Positions 6,850-60,358 of a DNA stretch of 64,000 nucleotides are shown here, piece by piece; position 1 is the stretch's first letter; the number at the start of each line of letters is the position of its first letter. Below the pieces are notes generated by a model. It saw only the letters and a list, made by a program, of their open reading frames with translations, made no database searches and was not told where the DNA came from. Origin of the DNA: Archangium gephyra (GTDB lineage: Bacteria; Myxococcota; Myxococcia; Myxococcales; Myxococcaceae); the NCBI RefSeq assembly GCF_001027285.1, contig NZ_CP011509.1, positions 12,238,501 through 12,302,500 of the forward strand, in the 5' to 3' direction. Position numbers and translations under genes: made by a program.

Positions 6850-7620
6850 TCACCGCCTGGACCGCCATCTCTCCACGGCGGACCGGATGCCACGCGCGAT
6901 GTCCGTGAAGGCCTCGTCACGATCGCCCCAACGGGTCACCGCGGTGTCGTTGCTCGGCAGAGCCTTGAGCTTGCTGAAGGGAGCATCCTTCCAGTCACAG
7001 GGGCGAAGGAGGATGGGAATGACGAGGGCGTTGCCCGCCGACTGGCGCTCCATGGCGCGCTCCATCTGGACGGAGTAGCAGACGTCGGAGGCAATGAAGT
7101 CGGCACTGATGAGCAGGAGGATGACATCCGCGCTCTCCAGCCGGGAGAGGATCTCGGCATTCTCATCCTGACCGGCTTCGACCTTGCCATCGTGCCAGCC
7201 CGTGATGACGCCCTGGCGCTGAAGCAGCTTGAGGTGCGTCTCGAGCTTGTCGCGCAGAGACTTGTCGCTGGGAGCGTAGGAGTAGAAGATCTCGGGGGGC
7301 TTGTCCTTGGACACGGGCGTGGACGTGGGGCCCGGAGTTGGCGCAGTGGCCAAGAGGCCAAGCTGCGCGGCACACGCACGCAGCCCGGGGTTGCCTGGGT
7401 TCGCCTTCAGGGCGCCAGTGACGAGCTCCGCCAGCCGCCCCTGCGACTCGGCCCACTCGATCAGCTTGAACACCGTGTTCGCCAGCCCTCCGCCCTCGGC
7501 GATGGCCGCGAGGTTCTCCCCGAGCTGGAAGCGCACCATCTGGGTCAGCAAAGCACTCGTCGGGAACGCACCGAGGAGCGCCTTCTGAAGCTCCTGAAAC
7601 TGAGGACCCGTCAACTCCAT
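6850..7620 (-). CDS. EAD1-TIR domain protein
   Basis: A 256-residue two-domain protein. Residues 1-85 resemble effector-associated domain 1 (LTGPQFQELQKALLGAF ... LGENLAAIA ... LIEWAESQGRLAELV), a helical adaptor of bacterial conflict systems that pairs sensors with effectors. After a Pro/Thr linker, residues 108-250 form a TIR_2-type domain: EIFYSYAPSDKSLRDKLETH, ADVILLLISADFIASDVCY, VIPILLRPCDW. In related proteins as I remember them, CY.(I/V)E carries the catalytic glutamate four residues after Cys; here the residue is Gln185, with Glu187 nearby, so NADase activity is uncertain. It is a single gene, convergent with the VDWSA gene. A partner with a matching EAD1 should exist elsewhere in the genome. 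Confidence 0.82.
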   Translation of the reverse strand: MELTGPQFQELQKALLGAFPTSALLTQMVRFQLGENLAAIAEGGGLANTVFKLIEWAESQGRLAELVTGALKANPGNPGLRACAAQLGLLATAPTPGPTSTPVSKDKPPEIFYSYAPSDKSLRDKLETHLKLLQRQGVITGWHDGKVEAGQDENAEILSRLESADVILLLISADFIASDVCYSVQMERAMERQSAGNALVIPILLRPCDWKDAPFSKLKALPSNDTAVTRWGDRDEAFTDIARGIRSAVERWRSRR

Positions 7621-15024: not shown

Positions 15025-15495
15025 ATGACGCAGGCCTCGATTGGAGTGGGAGTGGCGCGGGTGGAGGTGGAGGTGACGATTTCCGCGCCGCGGGAGCGGG
15101 TGTGGAAGGCGCTGGTGGAGGAGACGGGCCAGTGGTGGCCCAAGGACTTCTACGTGGGCCGGGAGCCCAAGGGCTTCATCCTCGAGGCCCGTCCGGGAGG
15201 GCGGGTGTACGAGGACTGGGGCGGGGACGCGGGAGCGCTCTGGTACACGGTGCTGGTGGTGGAGCCGCCGGCGGTGTTGGAGCTGGCGGGGCACCTGACA
15301 CCGGCGTTTGGAGGACCGGCGACGACGACGGCGCGGCTGACGTTGAAGGAGCAGGGAGGAGCGACGGTGGTGCGAGTAGAGGACGCGGTCTTCGGACGGG
15401 TGGACGAGAACACGAGCCCGAGGCTGCGCGAAGGTTGGCGCACACTGATGGGGAGCGGAGGCCTGAAGGCCCACGTGGAGAAGCAGACGCCATAG
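15025..15495 (+). CDS. SRPBCC/AHSA1-domain protein
   Basis: 156 residues forming one START/Bet v1-like (SRPBCC) domain: VEVTISAPRERVWKALVEETGQWWP at the start, a central EARPGGRVYEDWG and the C-terminal long helix EGWRTLMGSGGLKAHVEKQ. AHSA1-type members bind hydrophobic ligands or aid chaperones; ligand unknown. AAGGAGGAG lies just upstream of the ATG. A REP-like element begins 35 bases past the stop. Confidence 0.85.
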   Translation: MTQASIGVGVARVEVEVTISAPRERVWKALVEETGQWWPKDFYVGREPKGFILEARPGGRVYEDWGGDAGALWYTVLVVEPPAVLELAGHLTPAFGGPATTTARLTLKEQGGATVVRVEDAVFGRVDENTSPRLREGWRTLMGSGGLKAHVEKQTP

Positions 15496-15530: not shown

Positions 15531-15580
15531 CCCTCGCCCTCCGGGAGAGGGACGGGGTGAGGGTGTCCGGGCCCCGGGTT
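15531..15580. repeat. REP-like palindromic element, copy 1
   Basis: A GC-rich stem CCCTCGCCCTCC/GGGAGAGGG followed by ACGGGGTGAGGGTGTCCGGG and GCCCCGGGTT. The same layout recurs at 17628, 21031, 28722, 29581, 48021 and 60307. It lies between the SRPBCC gene and the next gene, 35 bases past the stop; the rest of this 200-base gap shows nothing further. Confidence 0.85.
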
Positions 15581-17625: not shown

Positions 17626-17627
17626 CT

Positions 17628-17676
17628 CCCTCTCCCCTCGGGAGAGGGCGGGGGTGAGGGTATCCGGGCCTCGGAT
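17628..17676. repeat. REP-like palindromic element, copy 2
   Basis: Shortened stem CCCTCTCCCCTCGGGAGAGG followed by GCGGGGGTGAGGGTATCCGG and GCCTCGGATT. It begins 2 bases after a stop codon, where it could act as a transcript end or 3' stabiliser. The remaining 115 bases to the next gene show no other structure. Confidence 0.85.
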
Positions 17677-24949: not shown

Positions 24950-26233
24950 TCAGTCGAAGCGGTGGTGTTGCCGCGTGTCGCGCATGAAGGCGTACACGAG
25001 CAGCGAGCAGAGGATGCAGCCGGTCACGTACCAGAAGAACCACGTCTCGTGGCCGGCCAGCTTGAGCCAGGTGCCCACGTACTCGGCGGTGCCGCCGAAG
25101 ATGGAGACGGTGAGCGCGTAGGGCAGCCCCACGCCCAGGGCGCGGACACGGGCCGGGAAGAGCTCGGCCTTCACCACGGCGTTGATGGAGGTGTAGCCGG
25201 AGATGATGACGAGCGCCGCCAGCACCAGCAGGAAGGCGGTGAAGGCATCCCGCGTGCGCGTGAGCGCCGTCAGCAGGGGCACGGTGCACAACGTCCCCAT
25301 CACGCCGAACCACATGAGCACGGGCCTGCGGCCGATCTTGTCCGAGAGCAGCCCGAACACCGGCTGCACCAGCATGTAGAGGAACAGGGAGGAGACGGAG
25401 ATGAGCGTGGCCTGGTCCCGGGTGAGGCCCACCGAGTTGACCAGGAACTTCTGCATGTAGACGGTGTACGTGTAGAAGGCGAGCGTGCCGCCCATGGTGA
25501 GCCCGACGACGAGGGCGAGCTCCCGGGGGTGGCGCAGCAGCTCGCGCATGGGGTGGAGCTCCGTCTTCCTGGCGGCCTCGGCCTGGAAGGCCTCGGTCTC
25601 CACCATGTTGCGACGCATGTAGAAGCCGAAGATGGCGAGCGCGGCGCCACACAGGAACGGGATGCGCCAGCCCCAGGACTCCAGTTGAGGACCGGTGAGC
25701 ACCAGCCGCTGCAACACCAGCAACGTCAGCGTGGCGAGCAGCTGGCCCATGATGAGGGTGACGTACTGGAAGGAGCTGTAGAAACCGCGGTGGCGGGAGG
25801 TGGCCACCTCACTGAGGTAGGTGGCGCTGGTGCCGTACTCGCCGCCGAGCGAGAGCCCCTGGAGCAGGCGGGCGAGGATCAGGATGATGGGGGCCAGGAT
25901 GCCGATCTGCGCGTACGTGGGGCACAGGGCGATGATGAACGAGCCCAGGCACATGAGCGTGACGGACAGGGACAGGGCGGCGCGGCGCCCGCGCAGGTCC
26001 GCGTAGAGGCCCATGAGCCAGCCGCCCACCGGACGGATGAGGAAGCCGAGCGCGAAGACTCCGGCGGTGTTGAGCTGCTCCACCACAGGGTTGTCGTGGG
26101 GGAAGAACGACCGGGCGAAATACAGCGAGAACGCCGAGTAGATGTAGAAGTCGTACCACTCGATGAGGTTGCCCACCGAGCCGCCGAAGATGGAGAGCAG
26201 GCGCTGGCGCACGCTGGACGAAGTCTCGGACAC
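24950..26233 (-). CDS. MFS transporter, metabolite:H+ symporter type
   Basis: 427 residues, 12 transmembrane segments, of the MHS branch (KgtP/ProP/shikimate-like): SVGNLIEWYDFYIYSAFSLY at the start, the GFLIRPVGGWLMGLYADLRG loop and QGLSLGGEYGTSATYLSEVA, then LLSDKIGRRPVLMW in the second half. Relatives import dicarboxylates, betaines or aromatic acids with protons. GTG at 26233 is 8 bases after the zinc-ribbon stop. As the last gene of the run with GH3, GNAT and a Rieske oxygenase, it may move the substrate or product of that pathway; this is inference. Confidence 0.88.
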   Translation of the reverse strand: MSETSSSVRQRLLSIFGGSVGNLIEWYDFYIYSAFSLYFARSFFPHDNPVVEQLNTAGVFALGFLIRPVGGWLMGLYADLRGRRAALSLSVTLMCLGSFIIALCPTYAQIGILAPIILILARLLQGLSLGGEYGTSATYLSEVATSRHRGFYSSFQYVTLIMGQLLATLTLLVLQRLVLTGPQLESWGWRIPFLCGAALAIFGFYMRRNMVETEAFQAEAARKTELHPMRELLRHPRELALVVGLTMGGTLAFYTYTVYMQKFLVNSVGLTRDQATLISVSSLFLYMLVQPVFGLLSDKIGRRPVLMWFGVMGTLCTVPLLTALTRTRDAFTAFLLVLAALVIISGYTSINAVVKAELFPARVRALGVGLPYALTVSIFGGTAEYVGTWLKLAGHETWFFWYVTGCILCSLLVYAFMRDTRQHHRFD

Positions 26234-26241
26234 CGCGGCCC

Positions 26242-26619
26242 TCAGTCCTTCGTGACGAAACGGAACACGTCGGCGAGGGCGGTCACGAAGCCCATCTCCT
26301 GGATGGCTCGCAGCTCTCCACCATCGAGCCACACGCCGTGGCACCGCTCGCACACGTCGAGCAGCACGTGACGGTCACGCTCGCTGCGCACCTTCTTCAT
26401 GGCCGCACGGGGACGGCACCGGGGACAGGCCACCTCGCGTGTCTGGACCTCCTCGGCCGGCAGCTTGCGCCACTCGAGGAACCTCACGTTCACGGTGGAC
26501 TCCAACCGCCGCAGGTCCTCGCCCTCGAGCCAGTGCCCTTCGCACTGGGGGCACTGCTGCGCCTCGACCCCCTCGGGGTGCACCGGCGTCATCACCTTGT
26601 CGCAACGTGGGCAGTTCAT
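26242..26619 (-). CDS. Zinc-ribbon (zf-TFIIB-like) protein
   Basis: 125 residues with two zinc ribbons: CPRCDKVM...CPQCEGHWLEGEDLRRLE (about 3-40) and CPRCRPRAAMKK...CERCHGVWLDGGELRAI (about 65-105). Both second halves carry the C..C.G.WL..GEL pattern of the zf-TFIIB family. Function of this family is not known; metal binding is certain enough from eight cysteines. It is packed between the Rieske gene (23 bases) and the MFS gene (8 bases), on one transcript. Confidence 0.85.
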   Translation of the reverse strand: MNCPRCDKVMTPVHPEGVEAQQCPQCEGHWLEGEDLRRLESTVNVRFLEWRKLPAEEVQTREVACPRCRPRAAMKKVRSERDRHVLLDVCERCHGVWLDGGELRAIQEMGFVTALADVFRFVTKD

Positions 26620-26642
26620 GGTCGCTCCTACGGTATCAAGGC

Positions 26643-27830
26643 TCAGATCCAGAAGACGATGCCGCGCTCCTCGTCCGCGGGGCCCTCGCCGTGTCCACCC
26701 TCGAGCAGCCAGCGGCGGTAGGCCTCGATGTCCGCGTGGAGCAGGTCCGCCTCGGTGCCGGCGAAGACGCCGCCTCCGGGACCGTTGGTCAGTCCCTCGC
26801 GCTGCACCTTCATGATGTCCACGTCCTGGCGGATGACCTGCGTGGTGTACCAGCGCACCAGCGGCATGAGGGCCCGCGCCACCAGCGAGCGCGGCAGGTC
26901 ATACGGCAGCCGGTAGCTGATGGCCGTGTAGACGAGGCTGTCCGTGGGACCGATGGGCGTCACCTGCGAGTTGATGGCGAAACCGCTGCGCTCGCCCCAC
27001 ATGTAGTCCACGCGGGTGATGTTGGGGATGAAGTAATGGTCCGTGTGGACCATGGGCAGGCCACTCGGGTTGAAGATGCGGCCCAGCCCCGTCACCGTGT
27101 CCTGCTCCTGCTGGTACGTGACGAGCACACTGCCCTCCGAGCGCTTCACCCGGGCCGGCACCCGCTTGCGCGCCGGGTCGCGGAACCACCCCCGGTGCAC
27201 GAAGACGGTGTGCGGCACGTCCATGAAGTTCTCCACGAGATTCGTCACCCCGTTGGGGAAGCGCGTGACCATGAAGTACACGGTCCACTCGGGCTGGCCC
27301 CAGTACGGCACACGGAAGGCCGGACGGCGGGCGCGCTTGGAATCTCCTCCCATGAAGACGTAGACGAGCCCGTCCTGCTCCAGCGTGTCGAAGCGTTGCA
27401 GCTTGCCGAGATCGCACGGGCGCACCTGGAGGCCCGCGCGCGCGTGGCCCTGCGCATCGAGCGCCTCGCCACACTGGCTGGGCCCGAGCGAGGGCACCTC
27501 CACCACCGCGCCCGAGGCGTCATACGTCCAGCCGTGGTACGGGCAGCCGATGCGGCCGTGGAAGACGTCTCCCGCGGACAGGCGCGCGTTGCGGTGCAGG
27601 CAGCGGTCGCGCAGGGCCGCGGGCCGGCCATGCTCGTCGCGGAAGAGCACGAGGTTCGTCCCGAGGACGGTGCGTGCCAGCGGCTTGCCCTTGGGCAGCT
27701 CGGTGGCGAGGCAGGCGACGTACCAGAAGTCCTTGAGGGCGCCGCAGCGGGTGAGGTCGGCCTCGGCCTCGAGGTCCACGGCGGGCGTGGTGACGAGCGC
27801 GAGGCTCTGGGCGTCGAGTGGGTTCCTCAT
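26643..27830 (-). CDS. Rieske non-heme iron oxygenase, alpha subunit type
   Basis: 395 residues. The Rieske [2Fe-2S] ligands are C77-x-H79 (DRCLHRNA) and C96-x2-H99 (GCPYHGW). The mononuclear iron site lies in NLVENFMDVPHTVFVHRGWF, with two histidines; a later Asp completes the facial triad. Such enzymes hydroxylate or demethylate aromatic, sterol or alkyl substrates using O2 and electrons from a reductase; no reductase gene is near. Its ATG overlaps the GH3 stop by four bases (ATGA), so the two are translationally coupled and likely act on the same molecule. Substrate unknown. Confidence 0.9.
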   Translation of the reverse strand: MRNPLDAQSLALVTTPAVDLEAEADLTRCGALKDFWYVACLATELPKGKPLARTVLGTNLVLFRDEHGRPAALRDRCLHRNARLSAGDVFHGRIGCPYHGWTYDASGAVVEVPSLGPSQCGEALDAQGHARAGLQVRPCDLGKLQRFDTLEQDGLVYVFMGGDSKRARRPAFRVPYWGQPEWTVYFMVTRFPNGVTNLVENFMDVPHTVFVHRGWFRDPARKRVPARVKRSEGSVLVTYQQEQDTVTGLGRIFNPSGLPMVHTDHYFIPNITRVDYMWGERSGFAINSQVTPIGPTDSLVYTAISYRLPYDLPRSLVARALMPLVRWYTTQVIRQDVDIMKVQREGLTNGPGGGVFAGTEADLLHADIEAYRRWLLEGGHGEGPADEERGIVFWI

Positions 27831-29557
27831 GACTGCTTTCCTTGCTGGGAGAACCAGGCGGTCCAGCCAGCCTGGCGATGGAGCTCCGTGGGTTTGATGT
27901 CGCCGGCGCGCTGGCCGAGCGCGATGCAGCGGGCCTCGTAGCGGCGGGTGCCCTCGGTGACGCGGAGGGCACTCACGGGGCCGAGCTGGCCGAGCTCGCG
28001 GGCATAACGGTAGTGGTAGCCCTCGCACAGGGCACGCTCGAGCGCCTGGGCGGCCTCGTGCAGACGCGTGTCGGGCACGTCGGTCTCGAGGAAGAGCCGG
28101 TAGGCCGGTGGCGCGTGGGGCTCCCACTCGGGGGCCACCATGGCGAACGGAGGACGCGGGCCGCCGAGCACCGCGGGCAGCAGGGCTTCGAGCACGGTGG
28201 AGACGCGGGTGGCCGCGAGCTTCTCTCCGACGAGGTCGCTCACGGCATCGGCCCGGCCCAGGAAGCGCAGACAGGGCGTGGCGTGGTGGAAGCCCTCGAC
28301 GCGGACGAGGTCTCCGATGCGGTAGCGCAGCAGGCCGCCCGAGGTGGACAGGAGGACGGAGTAGGTGCGGCCGGCTTCGAGCTCATGGGCGAGCCGTGGG
28401 CGGGCCTCGGGGTGCTCGGGCTCGAGGAACTCGAAGAAGTGGCTGCGGACGGCGAGCACGGGGGCGGGGGCATCGAAGAGGGGCAGCGTGACGACGCCCT
28501 CGGTGGCGAGCAGACCCTTGCCCTGGATTTCGACGCCCTGGAAGCGGCGGCGGGCGGGAGCGACGGAGTGCGCGGCCTGGGCATCGGTCCACATGCTGAG
28601 CAACGCGAGCCGGGGCCAGAGCATGCGTCCCTGGAGTCCGGAGCGGAGGGCCTCGCGAAGCACGCGGGCACGCTCGGGCCGGGGAGAAAACCGCATCCCA
28701 GACAGCACAGTGCCCACTCCTCCCTCGCCCCCCGGGAGAGGGTCGGGGTGAGGGTGCCCGTCCCCGTCCTCCCCACCGTGCTCCCCACCGAGTCCCCGAG
28801 GCGGCCTGCACACCCCACGCTCCAGATCATCCGCCAGCCGCTCCCCATGCCGCTCCAGTGCATCCATGAGCAACGTGAGGAAGCTCGGATTCCACACGCT
28901 CAGGAGCGCCAGCTCCTCACAGGCCACGAGGAACCACAGCGTCACATACCTGCACGACTCGACATCGGGCAGCCGGGCCACCGCACCGGGCACGGCGAAC
29001 ACGCGCGAGAGCACCGGCTGCAAGAAGCGCGGGAAGTACGCCGAGTCCTCCACGCTCCCCACCGGAATCCCTCCGGCGGTCCTCCCCTGCTTGCGCCCGA
29101 TGGGCGAGATGGACCAGTAGCTCGGGCCCTCGCGGACGGCGGGGCGCGAGTGCAACAGGTCGAACAGCATGGGCGCGAGCGCGCGTTGGAACTCGTCGAG
29201 CAGCCCCCGCGTCATGGGCACGTACTTGGACGCCCCCGAGGAGCCACCGGAGGGCTCGAAGCGGCTCACCGGTTCAAGGGTGAGGACGCGCGGTGTCCCC
29301 GCCTTGAGCGCCTCGATGTCCGGAAGCACCGAGTCCGGCGTGGAGATGGGGACCGCGTCCTGGAACTCGCGCGCGGTGCGGAGGCGGGAGAAGCCGGGGA
29401 CCCTCTCGGACTGAACGGTGTCCCGCGTCGCCCGGAGGATCCGGGTGAGGTTCTCGGACTGGGCTTCCTCGGGACGCGCGAGTGCCCGGTGGAACAGGAA
29501 CGCGGCTGGCGCCTGGGCCGCCATGAGCCCCGAGAGTAGACGGCGTGATGTCAGCAT
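27827..29557 (-). CDS. GH3-family acyl-acid amido synthetase-like protein
   Basis: 576 residues of the GH3 fold, known from plants where it adenylates an acyl acid (auxin, jasmonate, benzoates) and joins it to an amino acid. The phosphate loop SGGSSGASKYVP (103-114) and the GLLRYRIGDLVRVEGF motif (408-423) are clear, as is FLGRADAVSDLVGEKL. Residues 268-280 (HPHPDPLPGGEGG) are encoded by a REP-like element inserted in frame, in a loop between the two lobes. ATG at 29557 chosen; little ribosome-binding sequence is left because another REP copy lies 24 bases upstream. Coupled to the Rieske gene. The acid and amine substrates are unknown. Confidence 0.85.
   Translation of the reverse strand: MLTSRRLLSGLMAAQAPAAFLFHRALARPEEAQSENLTRILRATRDTVQSERVPGFSRLRTAREFQDAVPISTPDSVLPDIEALKAGTPRVLTLEPVSRFEPSGGSSGASKYVPMTRGLLDEFQRALAPMLFDLLHSRPAVREGPSYWSISPIGRKQGRTAGGIPVGSVEDSAYFPRFLQPVLSRVFAVPGAVARLPDVESCRYVTLWFLVACEELALLSVWNPSFLTLLMDALERHGERLADDLERGVCRPPRGLGGEHGGEDGDGHPHPDPLPGGEGGVGTVLSGMRFSPRPERARVLREALRSGLQGRMLWPRLALLSMWTDAQAAHSVAPARRRFQGVEIQGKGLLATEGVVTLPLFDAPAPVLAVRSHFFEFLEPEHPEARPRLAHELEAGRTYSVLLSTSGGLLRYRIGDLVRVEGFHHATPCLRFLGRADAVSDLVGEKLAATRVSTVLEALLPAVLGGPRPPFAMVAPEWEPHAPPAYRLFLETDVPDTRLHEAAQALERALCEGYHYRYARELGQLGPVSALRVTEGTRRYEARCIALGQRAGDIKPTELHRQAGWTAWFSQQGKQS
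28722..28760. repeat. REP-like element inside GH3 coding sequence, copy 4
   Basis: CCCTCGCCCCCCGGGAGAGG, then GTCGGGGTGAGGGTGCCCG. Same layout as the intergenic copies. Its length keeps the GH3 frame open and it is translated as HPHPDPLPGGEGG, a peptide seen only as an artefact frame at the other copies. Confidence 0.85.
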
Positions 29558-29580
29558 GGGTTCAACCTGAGACCCTCGCA

Positions 29581-29615
29581 ACCCTCACCCCGTCCCTCTC
29601 CCGGAGGGCGAGGGG
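29581..29615. repeat. REP-like palindromic element, copy 5
   Basis: Reverse orientation: ACCCTCACCCCGTCCCTCTC then CCGGAGGGCGAGGGG. It fills most of the 77-base gap between the GNAT stop and the GH3 start, the only loose joint in this minus-strand gene run. Confidence 0.85.
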
Positions 29616-29634
29616 AGATTGCTCGCGGTGGACA

Positions 29635-30402
29635 TCATGCCCTCACTCCGATCAGCTTCAGGCCCCGGCGCGTCCACAGCCGCACCTGCTTCATCGTCAG
29701 CTCCGTCAGCGCCCACAGCAGATCCCTCGCTCGGATCTCCGCCAGGCACACCAGTTCTTCCCCCTCCACGTGCGCCGGGTTGCTCCTCGCGAAGAAGGCG
29801 ATGTGTGGGTGCGCCGCGGCCTCCCTGTCGATCGGCGACACCCCGTCCCGCACCCGGTAGTGCGTGCCCGTGAAGCGCACCGTTCCCTTCGTCCCGTCGT
29901 ACTGCTCTCCGAACCAGCGCCCGGCCAGTACGCGCAGGAAGGACACCCGCTCCGGCGGTGCCTCCCAGTCGTGACGCGGCACCGTGCGCGGGAAGTGGTT
30001 CACCGCCAGCAGGTACGTCTTGTACCCCGCGCTCAACAGCAGCCACAGCAACGGCCGCAGCGGGCGGCGCAGCTTGCGCGCGAGCATGAAACGCCCGAAG
30101 CGCACCTGCAGCTCCTTCTGTCCCCAGTAGTCCGGGTGGATGACGGTGTCGCCCGAGAAGACGACCTCCACCGCCCGTCCCGCCACCTGCTCCTCCGAGA
30201 CGCGCAGCGTGCTGAAGCCCACCAGCTCGCCCGAGCGCCTCGCGGACAGGAGAATCACATACTGTTTGTCGGCTAGGTCCCGCGTGAAACGCTCGGCGCT
30301 CACGCCCGCGTAGCACACCTGCATCAGCGCGAGCATCTGCGCGCGCTGGTGCTCCGTGAGCGACTCGCGCGAAACCGTGGCTCCCTTCAAGGCGGAGAAC
30401 AT
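29635..30402 (-). CDS. GNAT-superfamily acyltransferase-like protein
   Basis: 255 residues. The first half has a GNAT-like layout: HQRAQMLALMQVCYAGVSAERFTRDLADKQYVILL (fragmented for description), ELVGFSTLRVSE, and a strand pair VEVVFSGDTVIHPDYWGQKELQ where the acyl-CoA loop would lie. It resembles N-acyl-amino-acid synthase/autoinducer-synthase-like proteins more than ribosomal acetyltransferases, but I am not certain. The C-terminal half (about 165-255) is unfamiliar. It begins 8 bases after the RnfD/FG-GAP gene and precedes GH3 on the same strand, which suggests an acyl-transfer role in the same pathway. Confidence 0.7.
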   Translation of the reverse strand: MFSALKGATVSRESLTEHQRAQMLALMQVCYAGVSAERFTRDLADKQYVILLSARRSGELVGFSTLRVSEEQVAGRAVEVVFSGDTVIHPDYWGQKELQVRFGRFMLARKLRRPLRPLLWLLLSAGYKTYLLAVNHFPRTVPRHDWEAPPERVSFLRVLAGRWFGEQYDGTKGTVRFTGTHYRVRDGVSPIDREAAAHPHIAFFARSNPAHVEGEELVCLAEIRARDLLWALTELTMKQVRLWTRRGLKLIGVRA

Positions 30403-30410
30403 CGGACTCC

Positions 30411-33263
<2,853 letters not shown>

Positions 33264-33376
33264 GGGACGCGCCTCCGAGCGCGCACCGAGAGTGCACCGC
33301 CCCCGCCCCTCTGTCCAGGACGGGCGGGGGGCTTGCATGTCCCCCCTGGAGCCTGCCCACCATCACGTCGATTCCC

Positions 33377-34327
33377 ATGCTTCCCTCCTCGTGCGCGCCC
33401 CTTCCTGCAAACTCCGGGCACCTCCCGCTTCGCGCTCCCGTTCCTCCCGAGCTGCTCGGCCGCGCCACCGTGCCGGCCCTGCTGCGGCTCGCCGCCACCC
33501 AGTGGGCGTGGATCTCCCTGTGCTGGCTGGGAATGGACCGGGTGCCCACCCTGGCTCCGCTGCTCGCGCTGCTCGTCGCCGGCCGGCTGCATGCGCTCGG
33601 CGTCGTCCTGCATGACGCCATCCACCTGCCCTGGCGTCACAAGGGCCCCGCGCTCCGGCTGTTGGAGCTGCTCGCCGGCCTCCCCGTCGCCACCACGCTG
33701 GAGGCCATGCGCTACCACCACCTGCGCCACCACCGCGACGCGGGCCTGCCCTCGGACCCGTACCGGCGGCCTCCCGCGAGCCCCTGGCGCCAGTTCGCCG
33801 TGTGGCTGCGCGTCTGTCCCATCCTCCCCTTCTGGGTGCTGCGCGGTCCCGTTGGCCTGCTCGCCTGGCTCCTCCCCGTCCTGCGCACCCCGTACGCGCG
33901 GCTCTTCCTCCAGGACCGCTCCGGCAACGCACTCACCCACGACGCCGAAGTGCTCGGCTGCGCCCGCGCCGAGTCCGCCCAGGTCCTCTTCCACCTCGTG
34001 GTGCTCGCCGCCGCCCTGCGCTGGCCCTCGGCGGTGGGCCTCGGCTACGGCCTGCCCTTCCTGCTGACCTCGGCGCTGTGCGCGTGGCGCCTGCTCGCCG
34101 AACACACTCCCAGCACGGTGAATGGACGCACCCTGCGTGACGTGCTCGCCTGCACCTCGGATCATGGGCTCGGCTGGCTGGGCCGGCTGCTCACCGCGCC
34201 GCTCCACGTGGGCTGCCACGTGGTGCACCACCTGCATCCCCAGGTGTCCCTGCACCACCTGCCCCGGCTTCGCGACTGGTACCTCCTGCGCTACCCTGAC
34301 CTCTACCCCCGCCCGCGTCGGCCCTGA
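33377..34327 (+). CDS. Fatty acid desaturase-family protein
   Basis: 316 residues with hydrophobic segments and the three histidine boxes of membrane di-iron desaturases/hydroxylases: LHDAIHLPWRH, RYHHLRHHRDA and HVVHHLHPQVSLHH. These enzymes use O2 to desaturate or hydroxylate acyl chains or other lipids. The gene is divergent from the RnfD/FG-GAP gene across a 113-base gap with no clear promoter boxes. Its stop overlaps the start of the next gene (TGATG), so the two are coupled. Exact substrate unknown. Confidence 0.85.
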   Translation: MLPSSCAPLPANSGHLPLRAPVPPELLGRATVPALLRLAATQWAWISLCWLGMDRVPTLAPLLALLVAGRLHALGVVLHDAIHLPWRHKGPALRLLELLAGLPVATTLEAMRYHHLRHHRDAGLPSDPYRRPPASPWRQFAVWLRVCPILPFWVLRGPVGLLAWLLPVLRTPYARLFLQDRSGNALTHDAEVLGCARAESAQVLFHLVVLAAALRWPSAVGLGYGLPFLLTSALCAWRLLAEHTPSTVNGRTLRDVLACTSDHGLGWLGRLLTAPLHVGCHVVHHLHPQVSLHHLPRLRDWYLLRYPDLYPRPRRP

Positions 34328-34962
34328 TGCTCGCCCCTCTCACCCGCGTCCTCATCCTCGCCCTGCTGGGCCTGTCCGCGCTGCTCGGCTTCTTCTTCTG
34401 GCGCAGGCAGAACGTCCAGGCGGCTCGCGGCGGCCGCATCTCCCCGCCCAAGCTCGCCTGGCTCTTCTACGCCATCTTCCTCTGGTTCCTTCTCTGCCCC
34501 CTCGTGGCGCTCGACTCCGCCGTGCACCCGGATCTGCGGCTCGTGCTCGGAAGCTTCGGCGCCTTCATGTGGCTGCGCGGCATGGCCGAGCTCTACATGC
34601 TCTACGTCTCCTACAACTGGAAGCCTCCGTACGGCATCGGCCATGACGTGCTGTGCATCGTCCTCGTGCTCGGCGGTCTCTCCTGGTACCAGCTCCACCG
34701 CGACGGCCCGCCCTCGCCGCTGGACGTGTGGGCCCTGTCGCTGATCGCCCTCGTGCTGGTGAGCCTCATCGTCGAGGTGATGTACGCCACGCTCTTCTTC
34801 CAGGCCGTGGAGGGACACACCACCGGGGACGACGGCATCTGGTTCGCCGACGAGGAGCAGGCCCGCTTCCGCCGCATCAACCGCATCACCCTGGCCTGCA
34901 ACATTCCGCTGTACGCGGGACTCGGCGGCCTGCTCGCCGTGGCCCTCGGATTCGCGGTATAG
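34327..34962 (+). CDS. Uncharacterised multi-pass membrane protein
   Basis: 211 residues with five likely transmembrane helices (VLILALLGLSALLGFFFW, LAWLFYAIFLWFLLCPLVAL, VLCIVLVLGGLSWYQL, ALSLIALVLVSLIVEVMYAT, NIPLYAGLGGLLAVALGFAV). No catalytic motif is seen. ATG overlaps the desaturase stop, so it probably assists that enzyme in the membrane. Family not recognised. Confidence 0.75.
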   Translation: MLAPLTRVLILALLGLSALLGFFFWRRQNVQAARGGRISPPKLAWLFYAIFLWFLLCPLVALDSAVHPDLRLVLGSFGAFMWLRGMAELYMLYVSYNWKPPYGIGHDVLCIVLVLGGLSWYQLHRDGPPSPLDVWALSLIALVLVSLIVEVMYATLFFQAVEGHTTGDDGIWFADEEQARFRRINRITLACNIPLYAGLGGLLAVALGFAV

Positions 34963-35029: not shown

Positions 35030-35380
35030 ATGACGCTCAAGACACTCGCTTCCGCCGCCACCCTTCTGCTCACGCTCTCGCCGCTCTCCATCGCCTCGGC
35101 GCAGTCCACCACCGAGAACGTCTTCCTCTTCGAGACGGTGGACAGCTACGAGCTGAAGAACGCGTACTGGCTCAAGCTCACCGGCATCGTGCGCGGCGAG
35201 GCGACGCCCCGCATCGTCGAAGTCCGGGCCAGCGTCTCCGACACCTACAACCAGTACCTGCGCGCGTGCGAGCGCATGATGCTCATGGCCATGAGCAAGC
35301 CGGGCCAGTACTACTTCGAGCTGCAGCTCGCCAACTACACGAATCCCCCCGTCACCGGCTGCAAGCTCGTGCGCCGCTAG
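35030..35380 (+). CDS. Small exported protein
   Basis: 116 residues: signal peptide cleaved near IASA-QS, then an 92-residue domain with SYELKNAYWLKLTGIVRGEA, VEVRASVSDTYNQYLRACER and FELQLANYTNPPVTGCKLVR, including two cysteines that may pair. Family not recognised. It precedes the repeat lipoprotein gene by 38 bases and may share its transcript. Confidence 0.7.
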   Translation: MTLKTLASAATLLLTLSPLSIASAQSTTENVFLFETVDSYELKNAYWLKLTGIVRGEATPRIVEVRASVSDTYNQYLRACERMMLMAMSKPGQYYFELQLANYTNPPVTGCKLVRR

Positions 35381-42248: not shown

Positions 42249-43340
42249 TCAGCAGCTCGCTTCCGTCGTGGCGCACAGGACCGTCACCAGCGTCTCCTCC
42301 TTGTAGCCCACGCCCACATAACCGGGCCCCGGGCGGATGTGCACCGCCGGGTGCGGGAAGGACCAGTTCCCCGCGAGCCGATGGGCCGGTGCTGGACAGA
42401 AGCCCGCGTTGCGCAGCCGGTTGCCCCACGTCTCCACCCGCTCGTGCCGCTCATAGCGCTGCGAGTCGTCCACCGCGCCGAGGATGTCCTCGAACTCGCG
42501 GCCGAAGAAGAGCTTGATGCCGTTGCGCTCGCGCTCGGGCAGGCCCAGCTCGTCCACCAGCTCGAAGTTGTGCGAGAAGTGGTGCCACGCGTTGTGGAAG
42601 CGCTGGGACAGCGAGTCGGTGGCGTGGTCCGAGTTCGGCTCCACCAGCACCACGGCGGTGGGCTCCATGGTGCGCATCCGGTGGAAGACCTCCTGCCGGT
42701 CCACGCCCGCGGCGATGTGGTGCATGGCGAAGGCCGAGTGCACCAGCCGCGGCCCCGGGGTGTCCCGCAGCAGGGCCCAGTCCTCCTCGTCGAGCGCCTC
42801 GACGACCTTGGGGACACTCACGAAACGCAGGGTGATGCCCATCTCCCCCGCGAGGGCCGTGAGGGACGTCTCCGCCTGACGCAGGCTGTGCGGGTCGGGC
42901 TCCACTCCCACCACGGTGAGCCGCCGCAGCGTGGTGCCGCGCTCCGCCAGCTGCCGCAGCAGCGCCGCCTCCTGCCGCCCCGTGCCCAGGCCCACGTCGA
43001 TGAGCGTGGCGTCCTCGTGGCCCTCGAGCAGCCCACACAACAGATCGTTGGCGATCCGTCCCGCCATCCCCACCATGGGAAGCCGCTCGGCCACCAGGTT
43101 GAAGAGGGAGATTTGAGGCAACTCGAAGCGCCGCAGGTAGAGGTTCATCTGCTGCGCCTCTCCCACGCCCACCCGCCGGGCGAGCGCCGTGGCGAAGAGG
43201 AAGTACTTCATGTCCTCGGCCACCGCATCCACGTCCAGCAGCCGGGTAAGCGCCGCCAGTGAGCGCCGGGCCGCGGCCGACTGGCCCGTCTGCAGCTCCT
43301 CCAGGGCACGCGTGAGCAACGAGTATTTCTCCGATCGCAC
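42249..43340 (-). CDS. Bacterial GRAS-domain (Rossmann methyltransferase-like) protein
   Basis: 363 residues. It follows the layout of GRAS proteins: a helical cap (about 1-105, ARRSLAALTRLLDVDAVAED, MKYFLFATALARR), a VHIID-equivalent SAM-type loop IDVGLGTGRQ (114-123), HSAFAMHHIA (201-210), RFHNAWHHFSHNFELVDEL (247-265), and the SAW-like ERHERVETWGNRLRNAGF (297-314), close to the plant ERVERHE..AQWR.R...AGF. Plant GRAS proteins are transcription regulators; bacterial ones are thought to be methyltransferases on small molecules. The glycine loop here is intact. Cotranscribed with the PncC-like gene. Substrate unknown. Confidence 0.82.
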   Translation of the reverse strand: MRSEKYSLLTRALEELQTGQSAAARRSLAALTRLLDVDAVAEDMKYFLFATALARRVGVGEAQQMNLYLRRFELPQISLFNLVAERLPMVGMAGRIANDLLCGLLEGHEDATLIDVGLGTGRQEAALLRQLAERGTTLRRLTVVGVEPDPHSLRQAETSLTALAGEMGITLRFVSVPKVVEALDEEDWALLRDTPGPRLVHSAFAMHHIAAGVDRQEVFHRMRTMEPTAVVLVEPNSDHATDSLSQRFHNAWHHFSHNFELVDELGLPERERNGIKLFFGREFEDILGAVDDSQRYERHERVETWGNRLRNAGFCPAPAHRLAGNWSFPHPAVHIRPGPGYVGVGYKEETLVTVLCATTEASC

Positions 43341-47979: not shown

Positions 47980-48020
47980 GGGACGCTCAGTCTAACCCGG
48001 GTTTGGAGAACGGGGACGGA

Positions 48021-48057
48021 TACCCTCACCCCGTCCCTCTCCCGGAGGGCGAGGGGA
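48021..48057. repeat. REP-like palindromic element, copy 6
   Basis: Reverse orientation: TACCCTCACCCCGTCCCTCT then CCCGGAGGGCGAGGGG. It lies in the 87-base gap between the orn start and the hydrolase stop, 9 bases beyond that stop when read on the minus strand. Confidence 0.85.
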
Positions 48058-60306: not shown

Positions 60307-60358
60307 AACCCGGGGTCCGGACACCCTCACCCTGTCCCTCTCCCGGAGGGCGAGGGGC
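60307..60358. repeat. REP-like palindromic element, copy 7
   Basis: The long form in reverse: AACCCGGGGTCCGGACACCC, TCACCCTGTCCCTCTCCCGG and AGGGCGAGGGG. It starts 2 bases after the trxC stop and lies in the convergent gap with the SDR gene. Confidence 0.85.

What the first reader, a model, noticed from the sequence alone, without database searches (positions are those of the whole stretch)
24950..34962. Undescribed pathway candidate: GH3 + GNAT + Rieske + desaturase + RnfD/FG-GAP fusion
Six minus-strand genes (RnfD/FG-GAP, GNAT, GH3, Rieske, zinc ribbon, MFS) are joined by gaps of 8, 77, -4, 23 and 8 bases; a coupled desaturase and membrane protein are divergent 113 bases away. GH3 joins acyl acids to amino acids in plants, Rieske and di-iron desaturases oxidise substrates, GNAT can transfer acyl groups and MFS can move products. 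Together they could make, oxidise and export an acyl- or aryl-amino-acid signal or lipid. The RnfD-like domain might feed electrons to the oxygenases, since no reductase is near. The pathway itself is inference.
Basis: partly seen in the sequence, partly recalled or inferred. Interest (0 to 1): 0.8.

Follow-up and report, generated by a model that had tools for sequence, protein, structure and literature searches.

The report
Candidate amide-making myxobacterial gene cluster
A block of genes that many predatory soil bacteria inherit together looks set to join a fatty or aromatic acid to an amine and then oxidise it, and it includes a fused relative of two helper proteins that also sit in the gene clusters of enediyne antitumour drugs.

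Summary
In detail: all eight genes and all stated gaps are there. The GNAT gene has no Pfam match but folds as a GNAT.

The core is not chance. Membrane protein, fusion, GNAT, GH3 and Rieske keep order and strand in 27 of 28 loci read from genomes with a strong GH3 match; the 28th lacks the GNAT. MFS and zinc ribbon are not conserved; the desaturase is optional (16 of 27).

Best reading: an amide-forming natural-product or lipid pathway without PKS or NRPS. Chemistry and product are inferred.

The parts
34327..34962 (+). small multi-pass membrane protein ('mem', 211 aa), family unknown; present in all 28 cluster loci read from strong-GH3 genomes
   Evidence: no family above cut-off; 27 of 27, divergent from the operon; L055, same strand; also in L098, L099, L105, L110, L164; not found in L095
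33377..34327 (+). membrane fatty-acid-desaturase-like di-iron enzyme with three histidine boxes; optional part
   Evidence: PF00487, 86.5 bits; His boxes; 16 of 27 loci; homologue beside Rieske in Burkholderia arboris L004
30411..33263 (-). fusion: UnbU/RnfD-like membrane domain (about 32232-33251) followed by FG-GAP repeats with DxDxDG-like loops and a UnbV/ASPIC domain
29635..30402 (-). GNAT-fold acyltransferase, neighbour of GH3 across many phyla
27827..29557 (-). GH3-family acid-amido synthetase (acyl-adenylating by family), motifs kept
26643..27830 (-). Rieske mononuclear non-heme iron oxygenase, alpha-subunit type (Rieske + VanA_C)
   Evidence: 43% identical to a homologue in Burkholderia arboris
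   Evidence: (388 bits to the family profile); no Pfam match
26242..26619 (-). zinc-ribbon protein; present in the window but not a conserved member
   Evidence: (3 of 26 other loci)
24950..26233 (-). MFS metabolite:H+ symporter; present in the window but not a conserved member
   Evidence: (7 of 26 other loci)
28694..28780 (-). dispersed repeat in frame inside the GH3 gene (among the 34 aligned GH3s only in the window and, in part, L036)

Best explanation
The locus is one conserved biosynthetic unit that makes an amide-linked, oxidised small molecule or lipid without a PKS or NRPS. Proposed order: (1) GH3 adenylates a fatty or aryl acid and joins it to an amine (amino acid or polyamine). (2) The GNAT partner, and probably the tandem GNAT nearby, adds a second acyl group or hands over the acyl chain. 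(3) The Rieske oxygenase, and where present the membrane desaturase, oxidise the product. (4) The fused UnbU-UnbV protein, with the small membrane protein, acts at or across the inner membrane on the hydrophobic product, probably as a scaffold, conduit or maturation factor rather than an electron donor. Shown: gene families, folds of GNAT and UnbU domain, conserved synteny and co-inheritance, kept catalytic motifs, homology of the fusion to UnbU and UnbV, lack of a flavin-attachment motif. Inferred: each reaction, their order, the substrates, the membrane role and the product.
For: Same order and strand of fusion, GNAT, GH3 and Rieske with a divergent membrane protein in 27 loci, out of 28 read from strong-GH3 genomes. 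GH3, fusion and tandem GNAT: all three in 52, none in 40, partial in 4 of 96 family genomes (pairwise Fisher p 2.8e-22, 2e-23 and 1.4e-26, not corrected for relatedness). GH3 and fusion agree genome by genome inside mixed genera (g7 2 of 7, g19 15 of 27), and the genes are co-inherited even in two genera where the fusion lies away from GH3-GNAT (four such fusion loci read). GH3 within 6 kb of GNAT in 59 of 66 distant loci, 4 of the 7 misses being close to a contig end; tandem GNAT within 8 kb in 49 of 66. Burkholderia arboris carries GNAT, tandem GNAT, GH3, Rieske and desaturases together. GH3 amide chemistry has a tested bacterial precedent, OlsH (PMC12493201, abstract and passages). UnbU/UnbV homology.
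Against: No substrate, product, expression or mutant data. No electron donor for the Rieske enzyme among the window ORFs scanned. I saw no carrier protein or exporter conserved with the core, but very small ORFs were not looked for. The GNAT lacks the usual pyrophosphate-binding loop as judged by eye, so its acyl donor is uncertain. The desaturase is missing or a remnant in 11 of 27 loci. 13 further GH3 loci read in the same family (L056-L066, L074, L075) lack the fusion at that place. The fusion also occurs at loci without GH3, GNAT or Rieske (L158-L163), so its task may be wider. The 28 loci were picked through GH3 and are related genomes.
Confidence: 0.62

Rival explanations
1. The cluster makes a structural membrane amino-lipid (ornithine-lipid-like): GH3 makes the N-acyl amino acid, the GNATs or another enzyme add a second acyl chain, and Rieske and desaturase hydroxylate or desaturate the chains. 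(Overlaps with the best explanation; the odds are not exclusive.)
For: OlsH, a bacterial GH3, makes lyso-ornithine lipid (PMC12493201); 32 of 34 GH3s here match the OlsH model at E 0.001; membrane desaturase and membrane proteins in the locus.
Against: Window GH3 scores 42.9 bits against the OlsH cut-off of 620. No OlsI-like alpha/beta hydrolase among the genes scanned near the locus. Patchy presence within genera is unlike a structural lipid. Two distant cassettes, Acinetobacter and Halomonas, carry MFS and (Acinetobacter) outer-membrane efflux genes.
Confidence: 0.3
2. One reading: the RnfD-like domain passes electrons to the Rieske oxygenase and desaturase.
For: RnfD/NqrB fold; no reductase among the window ORFs scanned.
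Against: No flavin-attachment motif in 24 of 24 UnbU-type domains, present in the single control, E. coli RsxD. No other Rnf/Nqr subunit among the ORFs scanned. The fused part is an FG-GAP/ASPIC domain, not a redox domain. UnbU homologues sit in enediyne clusters, and the fusion also stands away from Rieske (L158-L163).
Confidence: 0.08
3. It is a degraded or diverged enediyne pathway.
For: UnbU and UnbV homology at 25-28% identity in the listed Streptomyces rows.
Against: No DUF1702 (UnbL) in the genome, while the Streptomyces control record scores 460 bits. No PKS or enediyne-type thioesterase among the 28 window ORFs scanned. The gene order is conserved.
Confidence: 0.03
4. Neighbouring genes with separate jobs, kept together by chance.
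For: MFS and zinc ribbon are variable.
Against: Synteny and co-inheritance; the same GH3, GNAT, Rieske and desaturase families together in Burkholderia.
Confidence: 0.02

Closest known systems
OlsH/OlsI ornithine-lipid pathway of Singulisphaera acidiphila (PMC12493201, abstract and passages)
   Same: bacterial GH3 enzyme in a small operon, predicted ATP-dependent amide formation, no PKS or NRPS
   Different: window GH3 far below the OlsH model cut-off (42.9 vs 620 bits); no OlsI-like gene among those scanned; GNATs, Rieske, desaturase and UnbU-UnbV instead
Enediyne PKS cassette (DUF1702 / UnbV-like / UnbU-like / PKS / thioesterase; cassette named E3/E4/E5/E/E10 in PMC5181780, passages; matching the names by gene order is my inference)
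   Same: homologous UnbU and UnbV proteins: tblastn 25-28% in listed Streptomyces rows, UnbU domains 25-26% in alignment A3
   Different: here UnbU and UnbV are one protein in the order U-V; no UnbL; no PKS or thioesterase of that kind among the ORFs scanned; GH3, GNAT and Rieske instead
RnfD / NqrB membrane subunits of Rnf and Na+-NQR
   Same: same fold (Z 17.1-19.6)
   Different: no flavin-attachment motif, no partner subunits seen, fused to an FG-GAP/ASPIC domain
Plant GH3 acyl-acid amido synthetases (JAR1, GH3.12)
   Same: GH3 domains and adenylation motifs
   Different: weak sequence similarity (best 60 bits); bacterial operon context
Rieske mono-oxygenases such as dicamba demethylase DdmC, methylxanthine demethylase NdmA and SxtT
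   Same: Rieske centre and Fe-ligand motifs, VanA-like C-terminal part
   Different: 73 bits at best to any solved one; nearest curated model, 4beta-methylsterol monooxygenase, 65 bits against a cut-off of 600; no reductase seen nearby

Membership tests
GH3 acid-amido synthetases | three GH3 domains above Pfam cut-offs and the adenylation motifs | tested here: met
   (109.9, 66.5, 33.7 bits against cut-offs of 23.6); motifs SGGSSGASKYVP and RYRIGD in the window protein. Over all 151 GH3 fragments the two regexes matched 112 and 109
OlsH lyso-ornithine lipid synthetase | NCBIfam NF052613 score of at least 620 bits | tested here: not met
   42.9 bits
OlsH lyso-ornithine lipid synthetase | OlsI-type alpha/beta hydrolase in the same operon | tested here: not met
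   none among the 18 ORFs scanned between 14.0 and 39.0 kb (two small ORFs there, 15025-15495 and 35030-35380, not scanned); the nearest alpha/beta hydrolase found is a dienelactone hydrolase at 7.7-8.6 kb
OlsH lyso-ornithine lipid synthetase | joins ornithine to a fatty acid | not testable with these tools
   needs an enzyme assay
Enediyne PKS cassette | UnbU and UnbV homologues | tested here: met
   met as homology, but in fused form
Enediyne PKS cassette | DUF1702 (UnbL) | tested here: not met
   none in the 12.49 Mb genome; Streptomyces control record 460 bits
Enediyne PKS cassette | adjacent iterative PKS and thioesterase | tested here: not met
   none among the 28 window ORFs scanned, which include all genes of the cluster
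RnfD/NqrB | fold | tested here: met
   Z 19.6 to 8rbq_D, NqrB 17.1-17.4, next folds 8.9-11.3
RnfD/NqrB | covalent flavin site (ApbE-type motif, recalled) | tested here: not met
   0 of 24 UnbU-type domains; E. coli RsxD has DGISQAT
RnfD/NqrB | other Rnf/Nqr subunits in the same operon | tested here: not met
   none among the ORFs scanned
GNAT acyltransferases | GNAT fold | tested here: met
GNAT acyltransferases | CoA pyrophosphate loop [QR]xxGx[GA] (recalled) | tested here: inconclusive
   the expected place reads WGQKELQ-like, judged by eye on alignment A1 and the A2 consensus only
Rieske non-heme iron oxygenase | CxH..CxxH cluster ligands and [ND]xxDxxHxxxxH iron-ligand motif | tested here: met
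   100 of 100 and 99 of 100 matched fragments; both visible in the window protein printed there
Membrane fatty-acid desaturase | three histidine boxes | tested here: met
   window HDAIH, HHLRHH, HVVHH; the three regexes matched 35, 31 and 35 of 35 fragments

The most novel reading that the evidence does not exclude
GNAT, GH3 and tandem GNAT form the core of an undescribed, PKS- and NRPS-free class of amide natural products spread over many bacterial phyla, with exchangeable oxidation modules (Rieske/desaturase here; B12-radical-SAM, multi-Rieske or efflux sets elsewhere). UnbU-UnbV is a general membrane/periplasmic maturation module for long unsaturated products that enediyne clusters and this class both use, so its function (unknown as far as I recall) could be worked out in tractable myxobacteria.
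Probability: 0.4. Interest if true: 0.82.

Novelty: new variant of a known kind. Interest (0 to 1): 0.6.

Why it matters
If true, a biosynthetic class that PKS/NRPS-centred mining would be expected to miss is present in Archangium, Myxococcus (including M. xanthus AM003), Corallococcus, Pyxidicoccus and Hyalangium, and its GNAT-GH3 core occurs in loci whose titles, mostly of metagenome bins, fall in 14 phyla. It also gives a non-enediyne setting for UnbU and UnbV, so the question of what these proteins do could be put to gene deletion in a laboratory myxobacterium instead of in producers of cytotoxic enediynes.

Tried and rejected
Burkholderia afc cluster (AFC-BC11): suspected after seeing the Burkholderia arboris locus. 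Term searches in PMC12186527 and PMC6301696 found no 'GH3' and no 'Rieske' in the main texts (passages only), so it was dropped.

GNAT = UnbL: rejected. UnbL is annotated DUF1702 in the Streptomyces clusters, and the GNAT here has no such Pfam match.

Sphingolipid link: one fusion locus (L158) has an alpha-oxoamine-synthase-like gene nearby (PF00155), but no like ORF was found in the other loci searched. Nine of the ten ORFs picked around L158 and L162 had no Pfam match and may be wrong-strand picks, so nothing is built on them.

Second GNAT-like match in the own genome: part of the fetched stretch is masked, so the long open frame is an artefact of masked letters; not pursued.

Literature: the listings of searches showed no paper that by title or abstract treats this cluster, GH3 as a ligase in Myxococcus, or UnbU outside enediynes; one search lists papers that mention UnbV/ASPIC domains in other bacteria and in human CRTAC1, which I did not open. 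The library holds open-licence PMC papers only, so this is not proof of absence. One search was useless because word-start matching caught unrelated words. No supplementary files could be opened.

Selection: 43 family genomes have a strong GH3 match (over 400 bits). I read 28 of these loci (own, 26 others with the full core, and G083, which lacks the GNAT), chosen for spread of genera; 15 were not read in this way. 13 further, weaker GH3 loci were read (L056-L066, L074, L075). The 66 distant loci are 61 of the 80 kept scan hits (the other 19 are close Myxococcaceae-type clusters, and 16 of the 96 confirmed hits were not kept) plus L004, L005, L064, L076 and L077; some of the 66 are Myxococcaceae-titled bins with the distant type of locus. 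Misses in the GH3 count: L005, L097, L113, L118, L130, L132, L156. Fisher values ignore relatedness. Presence sets for searches were read by hand off with cut-offs of 150 bits (GH3), 400 bits (fusion) and E 1e-30 (tandem GNAT). Of 56 ORFs in a rough gene prediction of the window, 27 plus the zinc ribbon were scanned with Pfam.


Full report
1. What is there. Pfam supports GH3, Rieske, zinc ribbon, MFS, desaturase and the FG-GAP/UnbV part; the RnfD part lies just under its cut-off. The 'GNAT' has no Pfam match, but a confident model is a GNAT fold. The RnfD part, modelled alone, matches RnfD at Z 19.6 and NqrB at 17.1-17.4, well above the next folds at 8.9-11.3. The window lies in a 12.49 Mb single-contig genome. 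The best named matches in the genome scan are Archangium lansinium and A. violaceum, 94% identical in the GNAT.

2. It is one unit. GH3 was sought in all 96 family genomes held. Of the 43 with a strong match I read 28 neighbourhoods. In 27 of the 28 the fusion, GNAT, GH3 and Rieske genes follow each other on one strand and the membrane protein diverges. The 28th (G083, L055) has Rieske, GH3, membrane protein and fusion on one strand and the tandem GNAT, but no GNAT. The desaturase is full-length in 16 of the 27 and absent or a remnant in 11, so it is optional. The MFS was found in 7 of 26 other loci and the zinc ribbon in 3 of 26; these two are not part of the conserved unit. Thirteen weaker GH3 loci of the family (L056-L066, L074, L075) lack the fusion at that place.

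3. A further gene. Clustering the neighbours of 66 distant GNAT loci showed a third family of about 400 aa, tandem-GNAT-like, within 8 kb of GNAT in 49 of 66 (profile relation to the GNAT 77% probability, E 2e-5). In 41 of 43 genomes compared it is on the GH3 contig, 1.2 to 24 kb away.

4. Co-inheritance. Over 96 genomes GH3, fusion and tandem GNAT are all present in 52, all absent in 40 and partial in 4. The four are G007 (1260 contigs; GH3 only); G020, where the contig (L090) starts inside the fusion; G080 (1050 contigs; no strong GH3); and G049, which has other kinds of GH3 locus (L064, L074, L176). In genera with mixed presence, GH3 and fusion go together. In genera g3 and g26 the fusion lies away from GH3-GNAT (four of these loci read) yet is still co-inherited, which adjacency alone would not explain. 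Relatedness was not corrected for.

5. Wider spread. A scan of the species-genome collection with the GNAT profile kept 80 of 96 confirmed loci. GH3 lies within 6 kb of GNAT in 59 of 66 distant loci; 4 of the 7 misses are close to a contig end. Accompanying genes differ: a sequence cluster found in 35 of 66 loci, of which five members checked are radical-SAM proteins, four with a B12-binding domain; MFS and outer-membrane efflux in Acinetobacter; two or three Rieske genes with, in L103, a fatty-acid hydroxylase and a weakly AurF-like gene. In Burkholderia arboris, GNAT, tandem GNAT, GH3, Rieske (43% identical) and desaturases lie together. The fusion plus GH3 and Rieske also occurs in loci titled Eisenbacteria (L095), Myxococcota (L098, L099), an unnamed bacterium (L105) and Bdellovibrionaceae (L110), and in L164. 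In a tree of 34 GH3s, ten of the fusion-linked ones form a supported clade (99/100); L110 falls elsewhere on a long branch, and L098, L099 and L105 were left out as fragments.

6. The fusion is UnbU-UnbV. tblastn against 72,556 plasmid records gave 68 with a match, 46 of them Streptomyces, none covering 80% of the query in one place; 20 rows are listed. In the listed Streptomyces rows the two halves match genes annotated UnbU, 'enediyne biosynthesis protein' or RnfD-like and CRTAC1 or VCBS, at 25-28% identity. Two loci read out as DUF1702, UnbV-like, UnbU-like, PKS, thioesterase; a third has the same order with a 5.8 kb gene annotated SDR in the PKS place. PMC5181780 names the enediyne cassette E3/E4/E5/E/E10 (passages); matching these names by order is my inference. 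Aligned UnbU domains share nearly invariant RH..NPS, AP.YQ and TDP.T.P motifs. The genome has no DUF1702, while the control record scores 460 bits. In some other Myxococcota genomes UnbU-like and UnbV-like stretches lie in separate frames (L165-L167), and UnbV/ASPIC domains occur widely in other proteins (listing), so the pair is not enediyne-specific.

7. Not an electron donor, most likely. RnfD and NqrB carry a covalently bound flavin at a short motif (recalled). The motif occurs in E. coli RsxD (DGISQAT), the one control, but in 0 of 24 UnbU-type domains. No other Rnf/Nqr subunit was seen among the 28 window ORFs scanned. The FG-GAP part has seven DxDxDG-like loops, a calcium-binding pattern by common knowledge. 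This favours a scaffold, conduit or maturation role, which is inference; flavin bound in another way is not excluded.

8. Chemistry. The window's GH3, Rieske and desaturase keep their motifs. Bacterial GH3 amide synthesis is established for OlsH (PMC12493201; abstract and passages), but this GH3 is not OlsH by the curated cut-off (42.9 vs 620 bits). The Rieske enzyme is far from every curated model (best 65 bits against a cut-off of 600). Which acid, which amine, what the GNATs transfer and what is oxidised cannot be read from the sequence.

9. Verdict. A conserved, PKS- and NRPS-free amide-type pathway is the best reading; the electron-feeding idea is disfavoured. The link to UnbU-UnbV and the multi-phylum GNAT-GH3 pair raise the interest; the lack of any chemistry keeps it from going higher.

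Noticed in passing
window 28694-28780; further copies 48005-48055, 15531-15565, 29581-29614, 60322-60356, 17626-17661: A dispersed repeat sits in frame inside the GH3 gene, between conserved parts; another copy lies in the GNAT-GH3 gap. Among 34 aligned GH3s only the window and, in part, A. lansinium (L036) carry it, and translated copies recur across genomes of the genus.
   Followed up: partly
window 42252-43340 (-): A GRAS-domain protein (PF03514, 123 bits), a family best known from plants (recalled), lies in the same window.
   Followed up: no
window 6853-7620 (-): EAD1-TIR protein, domains known from bacterial conflict systems (recalled).
   Followed up: no
L145: A record titled Comamonas sp. 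KCTC 72670 (contig of 615,913 bases, the length of the contig that holds the cluster in G066) carries the Myxococcus-type cluster; G066 is a 9.0 Mb genome grouped in the window's family, so the title looks wrong.
   Followed up: no
L100, L103, L104, L107, L176: Another GNAT + GH3 cassette type with up to three Rieske genes; L103 also has SDR, fatty-acid-hydroxylase and weakly AurF-like genes, L100 a hexapeptide-transferase gene.
   Followed up: partly
L077 9965-19274: Citrobacter plasmid with GNAT-like, GH3, four radical-SAM genes on the same strand around an N-acetyltransferase (tandem-GNAT family), and PAP2, so the GNAT-GH3 module can be plasmid-borne.
   Followed up: partly
L065, L066: Some family genomes hold a second, distant GH3 locus (28-30% identical to the window's) without GNAT; in G033 (L065) two GH3 copies lie in tandem.
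   Followed up: no
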